Assembly: GCA_003244205.1 (NCBI GenBank) | Contig: QHBW01000098.1 | Location: 1-64,000, forward strand | Reading direction: 5' to 3' | DNA: 64,000 bases | DNA from: Solirubrobacterales bacterium | GTDB taxonomy: Bacteria; Actinomycetota; Thermoleophilia; Solirubrobacterales; Solirubrobacteraceae | Shown: positions 17,152 to 24,004 of the stretch, in pieces | Layout of the letters: every line of letters starts with the position of its first letter | Numbering within the stretch: the stretch's first letter is position 1 | Made by a program: the position numbers and the translations under genes | Notes under the pieces: model-generated | Told to the model about the DNA's origin: nothing | Databases searched by the model: none | The model's input: the letters and a program-made list of their open reading frames with translations, nothing else

Positions 17152-18033
17152 TTACAGCCCGCCCAGAAGCCGCGCAGCGACCCCGCGCAGTGTTTCCTTG
17201 CCGTAGGCGTGGGTCCCGTCATCGACGGTCAAGATCGCCAGCGCGACGCGCTTGCTGCCCTGCTCGAGCAGCGCCACCTGATGATCGACGCGTCCGGTTC
17301 CAGAGCCCCAGCCGCCCTTGAAGTACAGCTGCCAGCCGCGCGGGGCCGCTCGCGCGATCCCCCAGCGCTGCGGACCTATGACCGACGCCAGCAGCGCCAT
17401 CCCATACGCTCGATGGCGGGGCACGATGTAGCGGTCGATGTTAAGGAAGAACTGGGACTGGTCGCGCGCATCGATGAGGCTGTTGCCCCAGATCGGCGAT
17501 ACCGCCACGAAGCGGGTCATCCCCACGCGACTCGCCAGCGCCTGCAGACGGCCGTCGCCGACGATCGCATCGACCTGCGATGCCGCCGCGTTGTCCGACC
17601 AGCGGATCATTGGCGCCAGCAGCTGACGATCGCCGTCTGTCAGGTCGCGGTCGCGGACGCCGCCCATGTTCAGATATGCGACGAGCAGCATCGCCTTCAG
17701 CACGCTCGCCGAGGGCACGCTGTTGGTCGCGTGATAGCCGTAAAGGTGTCCGCGCAAGCGCAGCGCGATCATCACCTGGCCGTTGCGCCCCCGCGCGTAG
17801 GCGATTGCCTGGTCCATCCTGCGCTGCCAGAACGCCGGCGGCTGGAGATAGGCGGACTCCGGCGGGGGCTTGCCCGCGGAGGGGACAAGCGGCATTGCGT
17901 GAGTACCCGACGGGCGCGCCCAGCTGACTCCCGCCGGCACGACGATTGCGAGCGCGACCAGCGCCGCGGCGGCTGTCCTGGACCGGCAGGCTGGCGTCGC
18001 CCGCAGGCCTTCTGTGCGAACCCGTCCTCGCAT
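17152..18033 (-). CDS. secreted class A beta-lactamase-like serine hydrolase
   Basis: 293 residues. A signal peptide (hydrophobic core about 20-38) is followed by a penicillin-recognising fold: SVLK as the SxxK motif (about 110-113), SDN (about 147-149) and KGGWGSG in place of the KTG box. The Omega-loop Glu of true class A beta-lactamases is not evident, so it may be a D,D-peptidase-like or esterase member. It acts outside the membrane on the cell wall or a related amide. It diverges from the mauE-like operon across 93 bases. Confidence 0.82.
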   Translation of the reverse strand: MRGRVRTEGLRATPACRSRTAAAALVALAIVVPAGVSWARPSGTHAMPLVPSAGKPPPESAYLQPPAFWQRRMDQAIAYARGRNGQVMIALRLRGHLYGYHATNSVPSASVLKAMLLVAYLNMGGVRDRDLTDGDRQLLAPMIRWSDNAAASQVDAIVGDGRLQALASRVGMTRFVAVSPIWGNSLIDARDQSQFFLNIDRYIVPRHRAYGMALLASVIGPQRWGIARAAPRGWQLYFKGGWGSGTGRVDHQVALLEQGSKRVALAILTVDDGTHAYGKETLRGVAARLLGGL

Positions 18034-18126: not shown

Positions 18127-18654
18127 ATGGCACTAATGCCAGCGTTTGGGGTCGCCTCCGCTCTGCTGATCTTCGCCGGGGTGGCGAAGTGGCGCTCGCC
18201 TGAGTCCGCCCGTTACGCGCTGGCCCTGGTGGGGAGGCGTGTGCCACGTTCCGCCGTCCGCGCACTGGGAGCTGCGGAGACAGGTCTCGGCGCAGTCGCG
18301 CTCGCGCGACCGGGCACGATTACGGCGTCGGCCGTGGCGCTCGCGTACGGAGCGTTCCTTGTCTTCATCGTCACCCTGCTCCGCAGCGCGGATCGGCCGG
18401 CGAGCTGCGGCTGCTTCGGCGATGTCGAATCGGGCGCTGGGGCTGTGCACGCGGCACTGAACGGGGTCGGAATGAGCGTGGCCGTCCTTGCAGCGATCGC
18501 ACCACCACCGGGTCTCGGCTGGATCCTCACGCGCGTTCCGCTGATCGCTGCGCCGCTTGCGATCGGGATCGCGACCGCCGCGTTCGCCGCCTACCTCGCC
18601 TTCACGGCCTTCCCTCTGGCATGGCGTTCGTACAGCTCGGACGCGCCGACATGA
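18127..18654 (+). CDS. MauE/DoxX-like redox membrane protein
   Basis: 175 residues with about four membrane helices and the motif CGCFG (94-98), the Cys-x-Cys signature of MauE-type proteins. In methylamine utilisation, MauE together with MauD supports disulfide formation and export of the Cys-rich light chain of methylamine dehydrogenase. By analogy it would pass oxidising or reducing equivalents through the membrane for the Cys-rich protein encoded next. The next gene starts in its stop codon (ATGA, 18651-18654). It is the first gene of an eight-gene operon; no heavy-chain gene (mauB) accompanies it. Confidence 0.8.
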   Translation: MALMPAFGVASALLIFAGVAKWRSPESARYALALVGRRVPRSAVRALGAAETGLGAVALARPGTITASAVALAYGAFLVFIVTLLRSADRPASCGCFGDVESGAGAVHAALNGVGMSVAVLAAIAPPPGLGWILTRVPLIAAPLAIGIATAAFAAYLAFTAFPLAWRSYSSDAPT

Positions 18655-19265
18655 GCCAGCGGCTCGCCGAGGCAGCCAGCTCGCTGCTCGAGCGTCGTAC
18701 CTCGCGGCGCAGCGTCTTGAGCCGCGCCGCGCTCACGGGCTCCGCCTTCGTCGTCGCGCCGCTTCGCTACCTGCTGCGCCCGGTGAGCGCGTGGGCCGTG
18801 GTGGCGCCGGGAAACTGTGGTGGGGGGCTCTGCGACGATGGATACACGGCCTTCTGCTGTGAGATCAACCACGGTAAGAACGTCTGCCCACCGCACACCT
18901 ACGTGGGGGGCTGGTGGATGTGCACGGCCTACCAGGGAAGGGGCCTGTGCGCGCCGCAAGGGGTTCGCTACTACGTCGATTGCAACCAGACTCCGGGGCA
19001 GGGCTTCCCGGGTGGCTGCCGTTGTGCGAATGACAATTGCAGCGAGCGGCGCGTCGACTGCAATGTCTTCCGTTACGGGCAGTGCAACACGCAGGTCGGC
19101 GGCACGACTGCCGTGGGCTGCCGGGTCGTCGTCTGCCAGAACCCGGCGTCGATCGACGGCTTCAACTGCAACGGCAGCGTCGCGGTGGATGACAACACGT
19201 GCACGCACGAGTGGAATTGCCTCACGCCGCTCGTGCAGCAGCTTCCAGGCGACGGCGGTGCCTAG
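18651..19265 (+). CDS. Tat-exported 18-cysteine protein, MauA-light-chain-like
   Basis: 204 residues. The N-terminus carries RRTSRRSVLSRAALTG, a Tat-type signal, then a short hydrophobic run. From residue 56 the mature part holds 18 cysteines, including FCCEIN, CRCAND and FRYGQCNTQ, plus Trp in GGWWMC and HEWNC. The Cys density, Tat export and company of MauE- and MauD-like genes resemble the methylamine dehydrogenase light chain, where two Trp form the TTQ cofactor. Sequence identity to MauA is not obvious by eye, so 'light-chain-like' rests on architecture and context. It probably folds outside the membrane with up to nine disulfides. Confidence 0.7.
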   Translation: MSQRLAEAASSLLERRTSRRSVLSRAALTGSAFVVAPLRYLLRPVSAWAVVAPGNCGGGLCDDGYTAFCCEINHGKNVCPPHTYVGGWWMCTAYQGRGLCAPQGVRYYVDCNQTPGQGFPGGCRCANDNCSERRVDCNVFRYGQCNTQVGGTTAVGCRVVVCQNPASIDGFNCNGSVAVDDNTCTHEWNCLTPLVQQLPGDGGA

Positions 19266-19267
19266 CG

Positions 19268-19984
19268 GTGACCGCGCTGATCGCCTGTGAGACCGTTCTG
19301 CTCGCGCTACTGACGCTGCTCGTCGCCGGTTTGCTGCGCAGCCACGCGGAGATCCTGCGCAGGCTGGGGTCACCCGACGGTGAGCAACCGTTGAGGGCGA
19401 CGCTACCCGAGCCGGGCGAGCGCGCCGGCGCGGCCCCCGCCCGCGATCTCGCCGGCACCACGCCCGACCGGGACGCCATCCAGATCGGCTTGGGCGGGAC
19501 CTCGCCACCGACGCTCCTCGCCTTCCTGACCACGGGGTGCACGATCTGCCACGCCTTCTGGGAGGACCTGCGCCGCGGGCGGCCCGCGGAGGTCCCGGCC
19601 GCAATCCGCATCGTTGCAGTCACCAAGGACTCAAGCCACGAGAGTCCAGCATCGCTACGCCAGTTGGCCCCAGATGGGCTGCCAGTCGTGATGTCGACGG
19701 ACGCCTGGAATGACTATCGCGTCCCAGCGGCACCGTACTTCGTGTACGTCGCCGGCGGAGAGGTGCAGGGCGAGGGCTCGGCGAGCTCCTGGCGGCAGAT
19801 CGCCTCCCTGCTCGGCGACGCGATCGACGATCTCGCCTACGCGCACGAGCGCCGCGGCGGCGAGCGCAGGGCCGATCAGATCGATCGAGCGCTGGCGACG
19901 GCGGGGATCGGACCGGGCCACCCAAGCCTCTACCCAGCCGGGCTTCCCGGCGAGAACCATCCTAACGAGGAGGATCGATCGTGA
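19268..19984 (+). CDS. MauD-like membrane-anchored thioredoxin-fold protein
   Basis: 238 residues from a GTG at 19268. A single N-terminal membrane helix (about 2-22) and a linker lead to a thioredoxin-like domain with FLTTGCTICHAFWEDL, a CxxC active site (CTIC). A cis-Pro-like segment VPAAPYFVYV follows, as in MauD/TlpA proteins. It should face outward and shuffle or reduce disulfides in the Cys-rich partner. Its C-terminal 40 residues are charged and probably flexible. The gene starts two bases after the Cys-rich gene and overlaps the next by GTGA. AGGAGG at 19968-19973, inside its 3' end, serves that next gene. Confidence 0.82.
   Translation: MTALIACETVLLALLTLLVAGLLRSHAEILRRLGSPDGEQPLRATLPEPGERAGAAPARDLAGTTPDRDAIQIGLGGTSPPTLLAFLTTGCTICHAFWEDLRRGRPAEVPAAIRIVAVTKDSSHESPASLRQLAPDGLPVVMSTDAWNDYRVPAAPYFVYVAGGEVQGEGSASSWRQIASLLGDAIDDLAYAHERRGGERRADQIDRALATAGIGPGHPSLYPAGLPGENHPNEEDRS
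19968..19973 (+). promoter_or_regulatory. consensus Shine-Dalgarno that decides a start
   Basis: AGGAGG lies seven bases before GTG 19981. It is among the best ribosome sites in the window, and it drives a frame that meets UGA after only 23 codons. This favours the view that the frame beyond the UGA belongs to the same gene. Confidence 0.75.
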
Positions 19985-20649
19985 CGCAGATCGTGCTGCT
20001 CGGCTGCGCGGCGGGCTTGATCGCCGCCGTCCGTTCGGCGTGGTCTCCCTGAGGCCAGTCGATGCTTGCGAGCATCACCCCGCTCGGTGAGCGGGCACGG
20101 CGATCCAACTGGCTGTTCACCGTGCTGGTGTACGTCGTGGGATCGCTTGGCGGCGGCACGACGATCGCGGCGCTCGCGGGGGCAGCGGGCTCACTTGCGC
20201 TAGGGGGCGTCAGCTGGCAGGCGCGCATCGTCGTCGTGGCGGCGGTGCTCGCGATCGGACTCGCGTGGGAGGTGCTGCGCGCCGGCGTCCCTGGTCCGCG
20301 GAGGCAGGTCAACGAGCGCTGGCTGAAGGAGTACCGCGGCTGGGTCTACGGGGTCGGCTTTGGTGCGCAGCTCGGCGCGGGAGTCGTGACGGTGGTCATG
20401 ACTTCGTCCGTCTATGTCGTCTTGGTCGCGGCCTTTGCGTCGGGTCAATGGCAGAGCGGCGCGCTGATCGGGGCTGTCGCAGGAGCGTTGCGTGGCGCAA
20501 CCGTGTTGGCAGCTGCCCGCGTCCGTACTCCTTCACAGCTGGTTGCCCTTCACGCCCGTATGGACGCATGGCGAGCCCCGATCCGCTCGGGCTCACTGGT
20601 GACTCAGCTCGTGCTGTCCGTGCTAGCGATCGCGCTCGTGGCGAGCTGA
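19981..20649 (+). CDS. MauF/CcdA-like membrane redox protein with in-frame UGA
   Basis: Translation from GTG 19981 gives a first helix ending VRSAWSP, then UGA (20050-20052), then GQSMLASITPLGER and about five more helices to 20649, all in one frame. If UGA is decoded the product is 222 residues. The segment SP-x-GxSMLxxITPL matches the DsbD/CcdA/MauF-type motif in which x is the redox-active Cys, so UGA replaces that residue. The rest of the protein has only one Cys (position 9). Options are selenocysteine insertion, a TGC-to-TGA nonsense mutation, or reinitiation at ATG 20062, which would lose the first helix. It shares GTGA with the mauD-like gene; position and fold suggest it feeds electrons to that protein. 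Confidence 0.7.
20061..20095 (+). promoter_or_regulatory. SECIS-like double hairpin after the UGA
   Basis: Two perfect stem-loops follow the UGA. GATGCT-TGCG-AGCATC (20061-20076) has its loop 14 bases after the UGA. CCCGCTC-GGT-GAGCGGG (20079-20095) has a 7-bp stem with a loop starting GG, 33 bases after the UGA. The second fits the usual bacterial SECIS spacing of about 16-37 bases and the need for a G at the start of the loop. GC-rich DNA forms hairpins easily, so this supports but does not prove recoding. Confidence 0.4.
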
Positions 20650-20651
20650 CG

Positions 20652-21125
20652 ATGCTGCTACGGGCGCACGGAATCGAGATCGAGCTCCCCGCGGGCTGGG
20701 ACGGCCGCATCTACAAGCGACCCAGCGGAGACCCCACGCTCCACGCGGCGAGCTTCGCCCTCCCACGCGACGACGGCGACTTCGGCAGTGGCGCGACGGC
20801 CCGGATGCCCCACGGCGGAACCTTCTTTGCACTGCGGGAATACCGGCCAGGTGACGGCCTCGTCCCCGGTGCCGGTCTGTTCGCCAGCCGGCAGCTGCCT
20901 CTCCCCCTAGACACGCGACGATTTCACCCGCGCGCACTGCAGGTCGGCCGCCGGGGGCAAGCTGGCTTCCAGCACTTCTTGACCTGGGGCGAGCGGCCCT
21001 TCTGCCTCTACGCCGTCGTCAAGCCCGACGTGCGCGCGGCTGTCGTCGCGTCGGGCGCCGGTCACCAGGTCGAGCGGCTCAACCGCATCCTCTCGACCGT
21101 CGTCCTGCAGACGAAGTCTCAATGA
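20652..21125 (+). CDS. hypothetical protein of the mau-like operon
   Basis: 157 residues, beginning MLLRAHGIEIELPAGWDGRI, with a mixed alpha/beta composition and no signal peptide or membrane helix. The opening resembles small actinobacterial proteins that share an 'ELPxGW' strand, but no function is known to me. The ATG is two bases after the upstream stop, and the stop overlaps the next gene by ATGA. It is therefore translated with the redox genes and likely serves the same pathway in the cytoplasm. Confidence 0.7.
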   Translation: MLLRAHGIEIELPAGWDGRIYKRPSGDPTLHAASFALPRDDGDFGSGATARMPHGGTFFALREYRPGDGLVPGAGLFASRQLPLPLDTRRFHPRALQVGRRGQAGFQHFLTWGERPFCLYAVVKPDVRAAVVASGAGHQVERLNRILSTVVLQTKSQ

Positions 21126-21964
21126 GTGAGCTCGCGAGGATCCCCCGTCGGCTAGGACGAGTGACGAACACCGCGCTCGCGATCGGACTGCTGCTTGGCG
21201 TCTTCGTCCATATCTCAGGCGCCTACGGCGCGACGGGTGCGCGCCTCGCGGGGCGCTTCGCGATGACCGGCAAGATCACCTATGCCCGCAACGTCTTCGG
21301 CGAGCACGCCGGCCAGGGTGTCCGTCGCAACTGGACGTTCTATCCGCAGTGCCCGGGGAGCGACTGCGCACGGGTGATCCTGTGGCGCCAGCGCTCTGGC
21401 CCGCGAACTCTCGACCGGGTTGTCCTCGACCGGGTCGCGCCAGGTCTCTATCGGGGCCGCGGGCGCTTCTGGGTCCGTCTGCGCTGCAGCGGGCGGATAG
21501 ATGAGCATGGGGGCGCGGCGCTCGAGGCAATCACGGTAACGGTAACGCGGGCGAGGACCGTGGGGATCACCCCATTCGCCACCGCGGTGAAGGCCACCTA
21601 CGACAACCCAGCTCGCTTCAACTACACGCGTTGCCCGGGCGGAATCGGTCGTGACGCCGCGCGCTACTCCGGCCCGCTTGCAAGCGCTCTGCCCCAGCCA
21701 CCGGTGACCGCCTTCACGCAAGCAATCAGCGCGCTACCGACGACCGTGTCGTTTACCGACGAATCCCGGCCGCAGCAAGGCGGGGCGCCACTTGTCTCCT
21801 GGCGGTGGGATTTCGGCGATCCCGGGTCGGGAGCCGCAAATGACAGCTCGAGCGCCAGGGATCCGGTGCATGCGTTCTCCGCGCATGGGACCTACACCGT
21901 GACGCTGACCGCAAAGGACGCTTTCGGGCTCGAGACGACCGTCGCGCACGCGATCACGGTCTGA
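21122..21964 (+). CDS. secreted PKD-domain protein
   Basis: 280 residues. An N-terminal membrane segment or signal (about 17-37) is followed by a beta-rich middle region with four scattered cysteines. A C-terminal PKD domain (about 195-280) has LVSWRWDFGD, then HAFSAHGTYTVTLTAKD, the WDFGDG and YTVTLT hallmarks of this Ig-like fold. PKD domains usually mediate surface or protein-protein contacts. It may present or anchor the operon's Cys-rich product at the surface. Its start overlaps the previous stop (ATGA). Confidence 0.82.
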   Translation: MSELARIPRRLGRVTNTALAIGLLLGVFVHISGAYGATGARLAGRFAMTGKITYARNVFGEHAGQGVRRNWTFYPQCPGSDCARVILWRQRSGPRTLDRVVLDRVAPGLYRGRGRFWVRLRCSGRIDEHGGAALEAITVTVTRARTVGITPFATAVKATYDNPARFNYTRCPGGIGRDAARYSGPLASALPQPPVTAFTQAISALPTTVSFTDESRPQQGGAPLVSWRWDFGDPGSGAANDSSSARDPVHAFSAHGTYTVTLTAKDAFGLETTVAHAITV

Positions 21965-21972
21965 GGGCAGAA

Positions 21973-22365
21973 GTGCTCGACGATACGCTCCGACCGCGAG
22001 CGCTCGGTTGCGTTGTGCTCGCAGGGCTCCTTACCGTCGTCGGTTGCGGCGGTGGCCACGTGTCGAGCGCGCCGCCCACTAAGTCCACGCCGAATGCGCG
22101 TCTGCTCGCTTCGGTCGAGCGGGCCCTGCGGCGCAATCCCAACCAAGCGGCGTCCTACGCTCGCTGCCGGACCGCGCCCGCGGGTGAGGTTCGGCACGCA
22201 CCCTTTGGAAACACGCGTCGCCCGGTGCTGCGCTGTCTAATCAAGCTGGGCGGTGCTCCGCTTGAGAGCTACGACGTGCAGGTGCTCGCCAACGGATGCT
22301 TTGTCGGAGAGCGCCTGCCCCCCGGACGAGCCGATAGTGGATGTGGGGCACTCGTCGTCCCTTAG
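21973..22365 (+). CDS. small lipoprotein, last gene of the mau-like operon
   Basis: 130 residues from a GTG at 21973. A lipobox-type ending LTVVGC at about residue 25 predicts lipid attachment at Cys, followed by a short Ser/Pro linker. The globular part has four further cysteines (RCRTAP-like, LRCLIK, NGCFVG and DSGCGAL), enough for two disulfides. No family is recognised. It starts eight bases after the PKD gene and looks like the end of the operon, since the next gene is convergent. Confidence 0.72.
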   Translation: MLDDTLRPRALGCVVLAGLLTVVGCGGGHVSSAPPTKSTPNARLLASVERALRRNPNQAASYARCRTAPAGEVRHAPFGNTRRPVLRCLIKLGGAPLESYDVQVLANGCFVGERLPPGRADSGCGALVVP

Positions 22366-22390: not shown

Positions 22391-24004
22391 TCAGCCGGCG
22401 CCCGCGCCCACCGGCTCGGCCTCGCGCTCGCCGGCGCGCGGCGACTCCGGGCGCTGCTCGCGGTTGGCGCCCACCAGCGCGCCTCCCGGGCAGTCGCCCG
22501 CCCTGACCTCGCGGCGCGGGTTGCGGATGCCCGCGAGGCTGAGCAGGCCTCCCGCCGCGGTCAGAGCAGCGCCGAGGATCGCCGCAAGGTGAAAAGCGTC
22601 GACGGACGCTGAGCGCAGCGTCGCTTGGACCCTCGGCGTCGAGCCCGAGACGGTCAGCGGTCGGCGCCGGCCATCGGCGATCGAGCGCTGCTCAAGCGGG
22701 GTCAGAGCAGCGTGGCGCACGCCGCCATCGACGCGGCTGGCGAAGTAGCCCGAGATGACAGCGCCGACGACAGCGATCGCCAATAACCCGGCTACCCGCG
22801 CGATCGCGTTATTGATCCCCGACGCCACTCCCGCGTGCCGGTCGTCGGCCGCCCCCAGCACGGTGGCGGTCAGGGGGGCAACGGTCATCGCCAGCCCCAA
22901 GGCGAAGACCAGCACCGCGGGGAGGATGTCGGCGACGTAGCTGGGGTGGGCGTTCACGCGCACGAAGAGCAACAAGCCGGCGCCCGCCGCGATCGGTCCA
23001 AGACCCATGAACAGACGCGGCCCGGCGCGGTCGGCGAGCGCTCCGAAGCGCCGTGAGAGGGCGAACATCACGACCGTGATCGGGAGCATCGACAGCCCCG
23101 CCTGCAGCGCCCGATAGCCCGCGACCTGCTGGAGGTAGACGGGCAGCGTGAACGTGAACGCCCCCAGCCCGCCGTAGATCGCCAGCGTCGCCCCGTTACC
23201 GACCGAGAAGTTGCGCGAGCGAAAGACGTCGAGCGGGAGCATCGGGCTGTGGGCGCGTCGCTCCCAGACCAAGAACGCCGCCAGCAGCGCCAGCCCGGCG
23301 ATCAGCGCCACGAGCACGAGCGGCGAGCTCCAGCCCTCCCGCGGCTGCTCGATCAGCGCGAACACCGGACCCGCCAGACCGAGCGCGGCCAGCAGCGCCC
23401 CGGTGAAATCGATACGCGCCGACTCGCGATGGCCCGGAGGTGCGAAGCGCAGCAGCAGCAGCGTGATGACAGCGGGCGCCAGATTGATCGCGAATACCCA
23501 GCGCCAGGACGCCGCGTCGACCAGCGCTCCTCCGCCGAGCGGCCCGATCACCGTCGCCACACCGCCAAACGCCGTCCATGTTCCAATCGCCGCGCCGCGC
23601 TCACTTTCGGGAAAGGTGTCCATCAGCAGCGCCAGCGTGCTCGGGACCAGCAGCGCCCCCGCCACCCCCTGGAGCACGCGCGCCGCGATCAGCGTGTCGA
23701 TCGTCGGTGCGATCGCGCAGACGAGCGAGAGCGCGCCGAAGCTGACGATCCCGGCGGCGAAGATCCGGCGGCGGCCGAGCAGGTCGCCGAGCGATCCGCC
23801 GATCAGCAAGAGCGCCGAGAGCGACAGCAGGTAGCCTTCGACGACCCATTCCTGGGCGGCCAGCCCCCCGCCGAGCTCGTGCCGGATCGCCGGCAGAGCG
23901 ACGTTGACGACGGTCCCGTCGAGGAAGACCATCCCCGACCCGACGATGCAGGCAACCAGCGTCAGCGTGCGGTGCAGCTGACGGGCGGGCGGCGCTGAGG
24001 CCAT
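22391..24004 (-). CDS. MFS drug exporter, DHA2 (EmrB/QacA) type
   Basis: 537 residues with about 14 membrane helices. Helix 1 has GSGMVFLDGTVVNVALPAI, the D-x-T-V-x-N-V-A-L-P signature of 14-TMS DHA2 antiporters. The loop GDLLGRRRIF matches the MFS motif A, and a motif C-like GPLGGGALVDA segment lies in helix 5. It should export hydrophobic or cationic compounds in exchange for protons. The last 60 residues are polar and proline-rich. It converges on the small lipoprotein gene 25 bases away, and no regulator adjoins it. Confidence 0.93.
   Translation of the reverse strand: MASAPPARQLHRTLTLVACIVGSGMVFLDGTVVNVALPAIRHELGGGLAAQEWVVEGYLLSLSALLLIGGSLGDLLGRRRIFAAGIVSFGALSLVCAIAPTIDTLIAARVLQGVAGALLVPSTLALLMDTFPESERGAAIGTWTAFGGVATVIGPLGGGALVDAASWRWVFAINLAPAVITLLLLRFAPPGHRESARIDFTGALLAALGLAGPVFALIEQPREGWSSPLVLVALIAGLALLAAFLVWERRAHSPMLPLDVFRSRNFSVGNGATLAIYGGLGAFTFTLPVYLQQVAGYRALQAGLSMLPITVVMFALSRRFGALADRAGPRLFMGLGPIAAGAGLLLFVRVNAHPSYVADILPAVLVFALGLAMTVAPLTATVLGAADDRHAGVASGINNAIARVAGLLAIAVVGAVISGYFASRVDGGVRHAALTPLEQRSIADGRRRPLTVSGSTPRVQATLRSASVDAFHLAAILGAALTAAGGLLSLAGIRNPRREVRAGDCPGGALVGANREQRPESPRAGEREAEPVGAGAG

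What the first reader, a model, noticed from the sequence alone, without database searches (positions are those of the whole stretch)
18127..22365. A mau-like cluster without MauB or MauG: possible maturation system for an unknown Cys-rich protein
Eight genes are linked by overlaps or gaps of at most nine bases: MauE-like, Tat-exported Cys-rich protein, MauD-like, MauF/CcdA-like, hypothetical, PKD protein and lipoprotein (the UGA splits the MauF frame if read as a stop). The order echoes mauF-B-E-D-A, but the beta-propeller heavy chain and the MauG cofactor enzyme are missing. That suggests a redox machine dedicated to folding, or installing a cofactor in, a secreted protein that is not methylamine dehydrogenase.
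Basis: partly seen in the sequence, partly recalled or inferred. Interest (0 to 1): 0.75.

Follow-up and report, generated by a model that had tools for sequence, protein, structure and literature searches.

The report
Selenium-using mau-like protein maturation operon
A small operon widespread in actinobacteria appears to build a secreted cysteine-rich protein with a helper membrane protein that uses the rare amino acid selenocysteine, a selenoprotein family we did not find in the catalogue we checked.

Summary
The cluster is real: seven (not eight) tightly packed genes at 18127-22365. Five form a conserved set found across Actinomycetota: MauE, a Tat-exported Cys-rich protein, a MauD homologue, a MauF homologue and a small unknown protein (all five in 60 of 80 related loci). 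The UGA in MauF is not a lesion. It stands where MauF has its invariant Cys (WSP-C/U-G). It is UGA in 60 of 67 loci and Cys in 7, is followed by a SECIS-like double hairpin conserved beyond codon needs and degraded in the Cys forms, and goes with SelB. The window's genome has SelB, SelD and tRNA-Sec. In 7 of 80 loci sel genes lie beside the cluster. So MauF here is a selenoprotein, absent from a 119-family 2026 catalogue.

The Cys-rich protein probably has the TTQ light-chain fold (weak evidence). It keeps one Trp but lacks the partner Trp, and MauB and MauG are not found in the assembly. The best reading is a selenium-dependent disulfide-maturation machine for a secreted/surface protein.

The parts
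18127..18654 (+). MauE homologue, membrane protein with a CGC motif (SCGCFGD)
   Evidence: Pfam PF07291 E 9.5e-13; homologue found at 70 of 80 related loci above the score used
18651..19265 (+). Tat-exported Cys-rich protein (18 Cys after the signal), likely TTQ-light-chain-like fold, lacks the second TTQ Trp
19268..19984 (+). MauD/TlpA-like protein with CxxC (TTGCTICH)
   Evidence: hhalign of the family against proteobacterial MauD 98.1%, E 1e-13; C91 and C94 invariant
19981..20649 (+). MauF homologue read through UGA as a selenoprotein (SPUGQSML), 222 aa, predicted polytopic membrane protein
   Evidence: hhalign against MauF 99.3%, E 2e-20, Sec24 aligned to MauF Cys; model pLDDT 95.7
20050..20052 (+). 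UGA codon, selenocysteine
   Evidence: TGA in 60 of 67 loci, TGC/TGT in 7
20061..20076 (+). first hairpin of the SECIS-like element (GATGCT-N4-AGCATC)
   Evidence: 6 of 6 pairs in 54 of 60 Sec forms and 0 of 7 Cys forms; synonymous null mean 7.4, max 15 of 60
20080..20094 (+). second hairpin of the SECIS-like element, apical loop GGU, 33 nt after the UGA
   Evidence: at least 5 of 6 pairs in 49 of 60 Sec forms (null mean 19.9, max 29) and 0 of 7 Cys forms; fits the published bSECIS limits
20652..21125 (+). small conserved protein of unknown family, fifth core gene, no signal peptide seen by eye
   Evidence: homologue at 71 of 80 loci above the score used; no Pfam or PDB relative
21122..21964 (+). 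secreted PKD-domain protein, lineage-specific neighbour
   Evidence: Pfam PKD; homologue adjacent in 14 of 80 loci
21973..22365 (+). lipoprotein-like gene (LTVVGC lipobox read by eye), only in the window
   Evidence: 0 of 80 other loci

Best explanation
A dedicated, selenocysteine-dependent machine that makes disulfides in (oxidatively folds) one secreted/surface protein. SHOWN by sequence comparison: the set MauE + MauD + MauF + small protein travels with a Tat-exported protein carrying 18 Cys in the window, and the redox-active Cys of MauF is replaced by selenocysteine encoded by UGA plus a SECIS-like element. INFERRED: the Cys-rich protein leaves by Tat and its roughly nine disulfides are formed and corrected outside; MauD (CxxC, thioredoxin-like) acts on them; the MauF selenoprotein, a CcdA-like membrane protein, passes reducing or oxidising equivalents across the membrane to MauD through its single Sec; MauE couples the pair to another redox carrier. 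Sec would make thiol exchange faster and harder to inactivate by over-oxidation. The product is probably not an enzyme with TTQ but a disulfide-stapled secreted domain; in other lineages it is fused to LGFP repeats (recalled as cell-envelope-associated).
For: Sec: 60 of 67 TGA, the rest Cys, none any other residue; MauF Cys aligned to Sec; SECIS-like hairpins beyond codon needs, lost in Cys forms; SelB over cut-off in 28 of 36 Sec-form genomes against 1 of 14 with a Cys form or no MauF in the cluster, Fisher p 6e-6, not corrected for kinship; SelB, SelD and tRNA-Sec in the window's genome; sel genes beside the cluster in 7 of 80 loci. Machine: gene set kept in 60 of 80 loci; MauD and MauF homology, MauE Pfam; invariant CxxC in MauD. 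Product: C, W, Y, D, R pattern invariant in 76 sequences; all 13 of 436 compared chains with Z 2 or more are MADH/AADH light chains; LGFP repeats in 3 of 7 long homologues.
Against: No direct evidence that selenium is present or that disulfides are made. Electron direction is unknown. Light-chain kinship is weak: VIA Z only 2.0-2.5, Foldseek alone none, no Pfam PF02975 hit in 76 members, mature-region hhalign E 0.0038 with 2 of 200 column shuffles as high. MauF has no second conserved Cys/Sec in the protein to close an intramolecular bond. 4 of 36 Sec-form genomes (draft MAGs L049, L055, L056, L067) show no SelB. The window's own element folds only modestly (z -1.21 against synonymous recodings; -1.81 against shuffles). 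[quoted passage not shown]
Confidence: 0.7

Rival explanations
1. Cofactor factory: the cluster installs a Trp- or Tyr-derived quinone in the light-chain-like protein, using W88 or W89 with a partner other than Trp108, as an amine dehydrogenase without a beta-propeller.
For: W88, W89, R106, Y107, D110 and Y142 are invariant in 76 of 76 sequences; light-chain-like fold hint; mau accessory genes present.
Against: The position next to the relevant Cys, where MADH has Trp108, is Q144 in 72 of 76 (or C/D at 136 under the other alignment). No MauG, no MauB, no conserved oxidoreductase neighbour seen. 20 of 76 members do have some Trp between residues 120 and 164, so an unusual partner is not excluded.
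Confidence: 0.1
2. The UGA is a stop: a truncated leader peptide and an internally initiated MauF, or a recent nonsense mutation or assembly error.
For: An internal ATG at 20062 could start a 195-aa frame.
Against: Same codon in 60 of 67 loci from several classes; Cys is the only alternative; the frame upstream of UGA is conserved (RSxWSP); SECIS-like structure; SelB co-occurrence.
Confidence: 0.03
3. Metal- or metalloid-related surface protein: the Cys-rich domain binds metal or captures electrophiles and MauE/D/F keep it reduced rather than oxidised.
For: High Cys content; redox relays of this type can run in the reducing direction (recalled, CcdA/DsbD).
Against: MauE has been tied to disulfides of the MADH light chain (van der Palen 1997, known here only through a passage in PMC7794033); 18 Cys in the mature part is even and the proposed fold is disulfide-rich.
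Confidence: 0.15

Closest known systems
mau cluster of methylamine dehydrogenase (Paracoccus denitrificans mauRFBEDA-amicyanin-JGMN, L131)
   Same: Homologous MauE, MauD, MauF; Tat-signal Cys-rich light-chain-like product; tight operon
   Different: No MauB, MauG, amicyanin or second TTQ Trp; gene order E-A-D-F; MauF uses Sec; extra conserved small protein
CcdA/DsbD transmembrane thiol-disulfide carriers
   Same: Weak Pfam DsbD_2 match in 4 of 9 members; predicted helices broken at the SPUG site, as recalled for CcdA
   Different: A single conserved Cys/Sec (invariant C24 only) instead of the pair recalled for CcdA
Rhodanese/DsbD fusion-like selenoprotein TsoB (NF045694)
   Same: Named as a selenoprotein with a DsbD-like part
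   Different: Motif UxxxxU with two Sec and a rhodanese part; our family does not match its model
MauE/MauD with Cys-rich precursors in Streptomyces candidate RiPP clusters (decRiPPter, PMC7794033)
   Same: mauE or mauD homologues beside a precursor with at least 8 Cys, without mau dehydrogenase (passages)
   Different: Predicted peptide precursors; no MauF and no selenocysteine mentioned in the passages read
Thermomicrobium roseum light-chain-like proteins with MauE (L136)
   Same: MADH-light-chain-like secreted proteins next to MauE, with no MauB annotated in the stretch shown
   Different: Closer to true MADH light chain; our family profile does not match them

Membership tests
Methylamine/aromatic amine dehydrogenase (mau/aau) system | MauE present | tested here: met
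   PF07291 E 9.5e-13 over cut-off
Methylamine/aromatic amine dehydrogenase (mau/aau) system | MauD homologue with CxxC | tested here: met
   hhalign 98.1%, E 1e-13, C91/C94 invariant; below the TIGR02661 cut-off
Methylamine/aromatic amine dehydrogenase (mau/aau) system | MauF homologue | tested here: met
   hhalign 99.3%, E 2e-20
Methylamine/aromatic amine dehydrogenase (mau/aau) system | Light-chain fold of the product | tested here: inconclusive
   13 of 436 chains with Z 2.0-2.5, all MADH/AADH light chains; sequence tests weak
Methylamine/aromatic amine dehydrogenase (mau/aau) system | Both TTQ tryptophans (Trp57 and Trp108) | tested here: not met
   Trp57 equivalent kept (W88 or W89, 76 of 76); Trp108 site is Q144 in 72 of 76 or C/D at 136; mapping rests on a weak alignment
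Methylamine/aromatic amine dehydrogenase (mau/aau) system | Heavy chain MauB/AauB in the genome | tested here: not met
   PF06433 absent in G000 (93% complete), found in 3 of 3 positive-control plasmids; absent in 9 of 9 genomes incl. G000
Methylamine/aromatic amine dehydrogenase (mau/aau) system | MauG in the genome | tested here: not met
   PF03150 absent in G000, found in the Paracoccus control; the amine dehydrogenase clusters show no MauG in the stretch either, so this feature is not universal
Bacterial selenoprotein | In-frame UGA at a position that is Cys in homologues | tested here: met
   60 TGA and 7 Cys of 67; Cys in MauF
Bacterial selenoprotein | bSECIS downstream of UGA (loop 16-37 nt away, G in loop) | tested here: met
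   Second hairpin: loop GGN in 60 of 60, 33 nt after UGA; at least 5 of 6 pairs in 49 of 60
Bacterial selenoprotein | Sec machinery in the genome | tested here: met
   SelB, SelD, tRNA-Sec with tca anticodon; SelA seen only as an ORF beside selB, by eye
Bacterial selenoprotein | Selenium in the protein | not testable with these tools
   needs 75Se or mass spectrometry
CcdA/DsbD family | Pair of redox Cys in the membrane core (recalled) | tested here: not met
   Only position 24 is an invariant Cys/Sec in 64 sequences

The most novel reading that the evidence does not exclude
This is an undescribed selenoprotein family, a MauF/CcdA-like membrane redox carrier working with a single selenol. It powers maturation of one secreted TTQ-light-chain-like protein that has lost its quinone, and in part of the Actinomycetota the whole selenocysteine apparatus sits beside, and may be kept for, this machine.
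Probability: 0.5. Interest if true: 0.85.

Novelty: new variant of a known kind. Interest (0 to 1): 0.75.

Why it matters
It would add a selenoprotein family spread over several classes of Actinomycetota and give transmembrane thiol chemistry a selenium-based carrier. It would also show that the mau accessory proteins are a general maturation kit rather than parts of one amine dehydrogenase. MauF, whose role is poorly understood (recalled), would gain a marked catalytic residue. Because ordinary annotation stops at the UGA, the gene is likely to be cut short or missed in such genomes. The Cys-for-Sec swaps and culturable hosts (Phycicoccus, Pedococcus, Knoellia) make the question testable.

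Tried and rejected
Foldseek of both models against PDB gave nothing at E 0.001. The VIA second look on the MauF-like model gave common helical transporters with Z up to 6.6, uninformative, and no CcdA chain among the rows shown. PDB sequence searches with A1, A2, A3 and A9 gave no hits; A4 gave only weak GAPDH hits, taken as chance. A profile of the Cys-rich family does not find the Thermomicrobium light-chain-like proteins, so they are no sequence bridge. A second MauF-like UGA gene (P0008) first looked widespread, but the matches in the 15 other genomes lie in regions that hold the known cluster; only G340 has the second gene. PF06433 first ran with a silent control and was repeated with a positive control. 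Literature: searches (listings) found no paper on a MauF/CcdA-like selenoprotein; the library is open-access only and no supplements could be read. PMC13188914: abstract, section 7 parts 1-2 of 3 and section 5 read; no Mau or CcdA entry. PMC12013277, PMC5029168 and PMC7794033: passages only.
Full report
THE OBSERVATION. 'Eight' holds only if the MauF frame is split at the UGA. MauE passes its Pfam cut-off and the PKD domain is clear; the window's Cys-rich, MauF-like and small proteins match no curated family above cut-off.

CONSERVATION. In the window's class, 9 of 299 genomes drawn, the window's own included, have the Cys-rich protein. In the 8 others the core order mauE - Cys-rich - mauD - mauF - small protein recurs, with MauE not detected in two, L029 and L030. 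All five core genes are found in 60 of 80. Of the other 20, 7 have E, A, D and the small gene but no mauF in the locus (L066, L068, L069, L078, L079, L081, L093), 2 lack a detected mauE (L051, L053), and the other 11 show only part of the set; many of these loci are short or reach a contig end, which I did not check one by one. Six of the seven genomes without a linked mauF carry a Cys-form mauF elsewhere; L081's genome does not. The PKD gene is next to the cluster in 14 of 80, the lipoprotein gene in none. So the unit is five genes, not seven.

THE UGA IS SELENOCYSTEINE. Translated through, the MauF-like protein reads RSAWSP-U-GQSML. In 67 loci that could be scored (66 plus the window) the codon is TGA in 60 and TGC/TGT in 7, never anything else. 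Profile comparison with proteobacterial MauF gives 99.3%, E 2e-20, over 192 columns, and the Sec aligns with the invariant Cys of STWSPCGYSS. Two hairpins follow the codon. The first, GATGCT-N4-AGCATC, has 6 of 6 pairs in 54 of 60 Sec forms and in 0 of 7 Cys forms; synonymous recoding would give a mean of 7.4, at most 15 in 1000 trials. The Ser codon in its 3' arm is AGC in 60 of 60, although AGC is about a third of Ser codons in these genes. The second has a GGN apical loop in 60 of 60, 33 nt after the UGA, and at least 5 of 6 pairs in 49 of 60 Sec forms (null mean 19.9, maximum 29 in 300 trials) and 0 of 7 Cys forms. It fits the bSECIS limits printed in a 2026 review (PMC13188914 section 5). 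Folding energy against synonymous recodings has mean z -1.59 for Sec forms and +0.54 for Cys forms; the window alone is -1.21.

SEC MACHINERY. The window's genome (2.66 Mb, 93% complete) has SelB over cut-off, SelD and tRNA-Sec with anticodon tca. Among genomes of 50 of the 80 loci, SelB is over cut-off in 28 of 36 with a Sec form. Four more (L038, L083, L100, L102) have a probable SelB just under it, judged by frame length or match extent, and four draft genomes (L049, L055, L056, L067) show none. It is over cut-off in 1 of 7 with a Cys form (L077) and 0 of 7 without mauF in the cluster. Fisher p is 6e-6 on cut-off calls alone; the genomes are related, so this overstates independence. In 7 of 80 loci (L044, L104, L105, L110, L112, L113, L115) selA, selB or selD lies within the held flank, and tRNA-Sec in three of them. 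A quick tree of 73 MauF-like rows, with three proteobacterial MauF as outgroup, needs 3 changes between Sec and Cys; the deep order is unresolved, so direction is open.

THE CYS-RICH PROTEIN. It carries a Tat-like signal and 18 Cys after it. Across 76 sequences 25 positions are invariant, among them W88, W89, R106, Y107, D110 and Y142 (76 of the 79 scored loci and the window being aligned). It does not match Pfam's MADH light chain or any PDB sequence. Its model is fair (pLDDT 76.9, about 90 in the core). Foldseek finds nothing significant, but of 436 chains re-aligned by VIA, the 13 with Z of 2 or more are all MADH or AADH light chains, model 65-164 on chain 32-128 in the MADH rows. The Z values are low (2.0-2.5), and mature-region profile comparison is weak (E 0.0038, 2 of 200 shuffles as high), so I call the fold likely, not proved. 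On that mapping Trp57 corresponds to W88 or W89 and the Trp108 site to Q144 (72 of 76) or to residue 136 (C or D mostly); neither is Trp. TTQ in its known form therefore cannot be made. In Acidimicrobiia, Nitriliruptoraceae and Intrasporangiaceae the protein continues into a long C-terminal part; 3 of 7 such proteins scanned have LGFP repeats, which I recall as cell-envelope repeats.

NO AMINE DEHYDROGENASE. MauB is absent from the window's genome and from eight others that carry the cluster (silent control), and again from the window's genome with three of three positive controls found. MauG is absent with its control found. The assembly is about 93% complete, so absence is strong but not absolute. 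No enzyme family recurs in the flanks beyond close-kin synteny.

MECHANISM. MauD is thioredoxin-like with an invariant CxxC. The MauF-like model is a confident polytopic helical protein (pLDDT 95.7) whose first helix breaks at residues 20-23, at the SPUG site, with another break near 133-143; I read this as a CcdA-like layout, which is inference, since the fold search gave only common transporter folds. It has one invariant Cys/Sec. I propose that MauF's selenol exchanges electrons with MauD, which shuffles disulfides in the exported protein, with MauE as the third redox partner. Order, direction and redox partners are inferred. The paper on MauE and MauD (van der Palen 1997) is known to me only through a passage in PMC7794033.

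NOVELTY. Neither NCBIfam 20.0 nor Pfam has a model that fits this selenoprotein (only a weak DsbD_2 match), and the 119-family catalogue of PMC13188914 lists none like it. Ten literature searches of an open-access library found none (listed under Tried and rejected). Subscription papers were not searchable, so priority is likely, not certain.

Noticed in passing
L126:6538-8634 (G340, Phycicoccus sp. HDW14): A second set directly upstream of tRNA-Sec, selA and selB: a MauD-like protein with CSSC, a Tat-signal secreted protein and a MauF-like protein with its own in-frame UGA (GSVUSFNSADLL). Found in 1 of 34 genomes searched.
   Followed up: partly
L136 (Thermomicrobium roseum plasmid): MADH-light-chain-like secreted proteins near MauE with no MauB annotated in the stretch shown; perhaps a separate use of this fold.
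   Followed up: partly
window 17152-18033 (-): Divergent gene upstream of the cluster reads as a secreted serine beta-lactamase-like protein (by eye).
   Followed up: no
window 22391-24004 (-): MFS-type transporter reading convergent with the cluster (by eye).
   Followed up: no
L042:9229-10552: MauF-like matches on both strands in one contig, which may be an assembly artefact or a duplication.
   Followed up: no
L057:9555-10208 and relatives: In Nitriliruptoraceae and kin a small secreted protein with SLH-like repeats (by eye) recurs near the Cys-rich gene in 7 loci.
   Followed up: no
L111:6825-7244: A second copy of the small fifth gene upstream of mauE.
   Followed up: no
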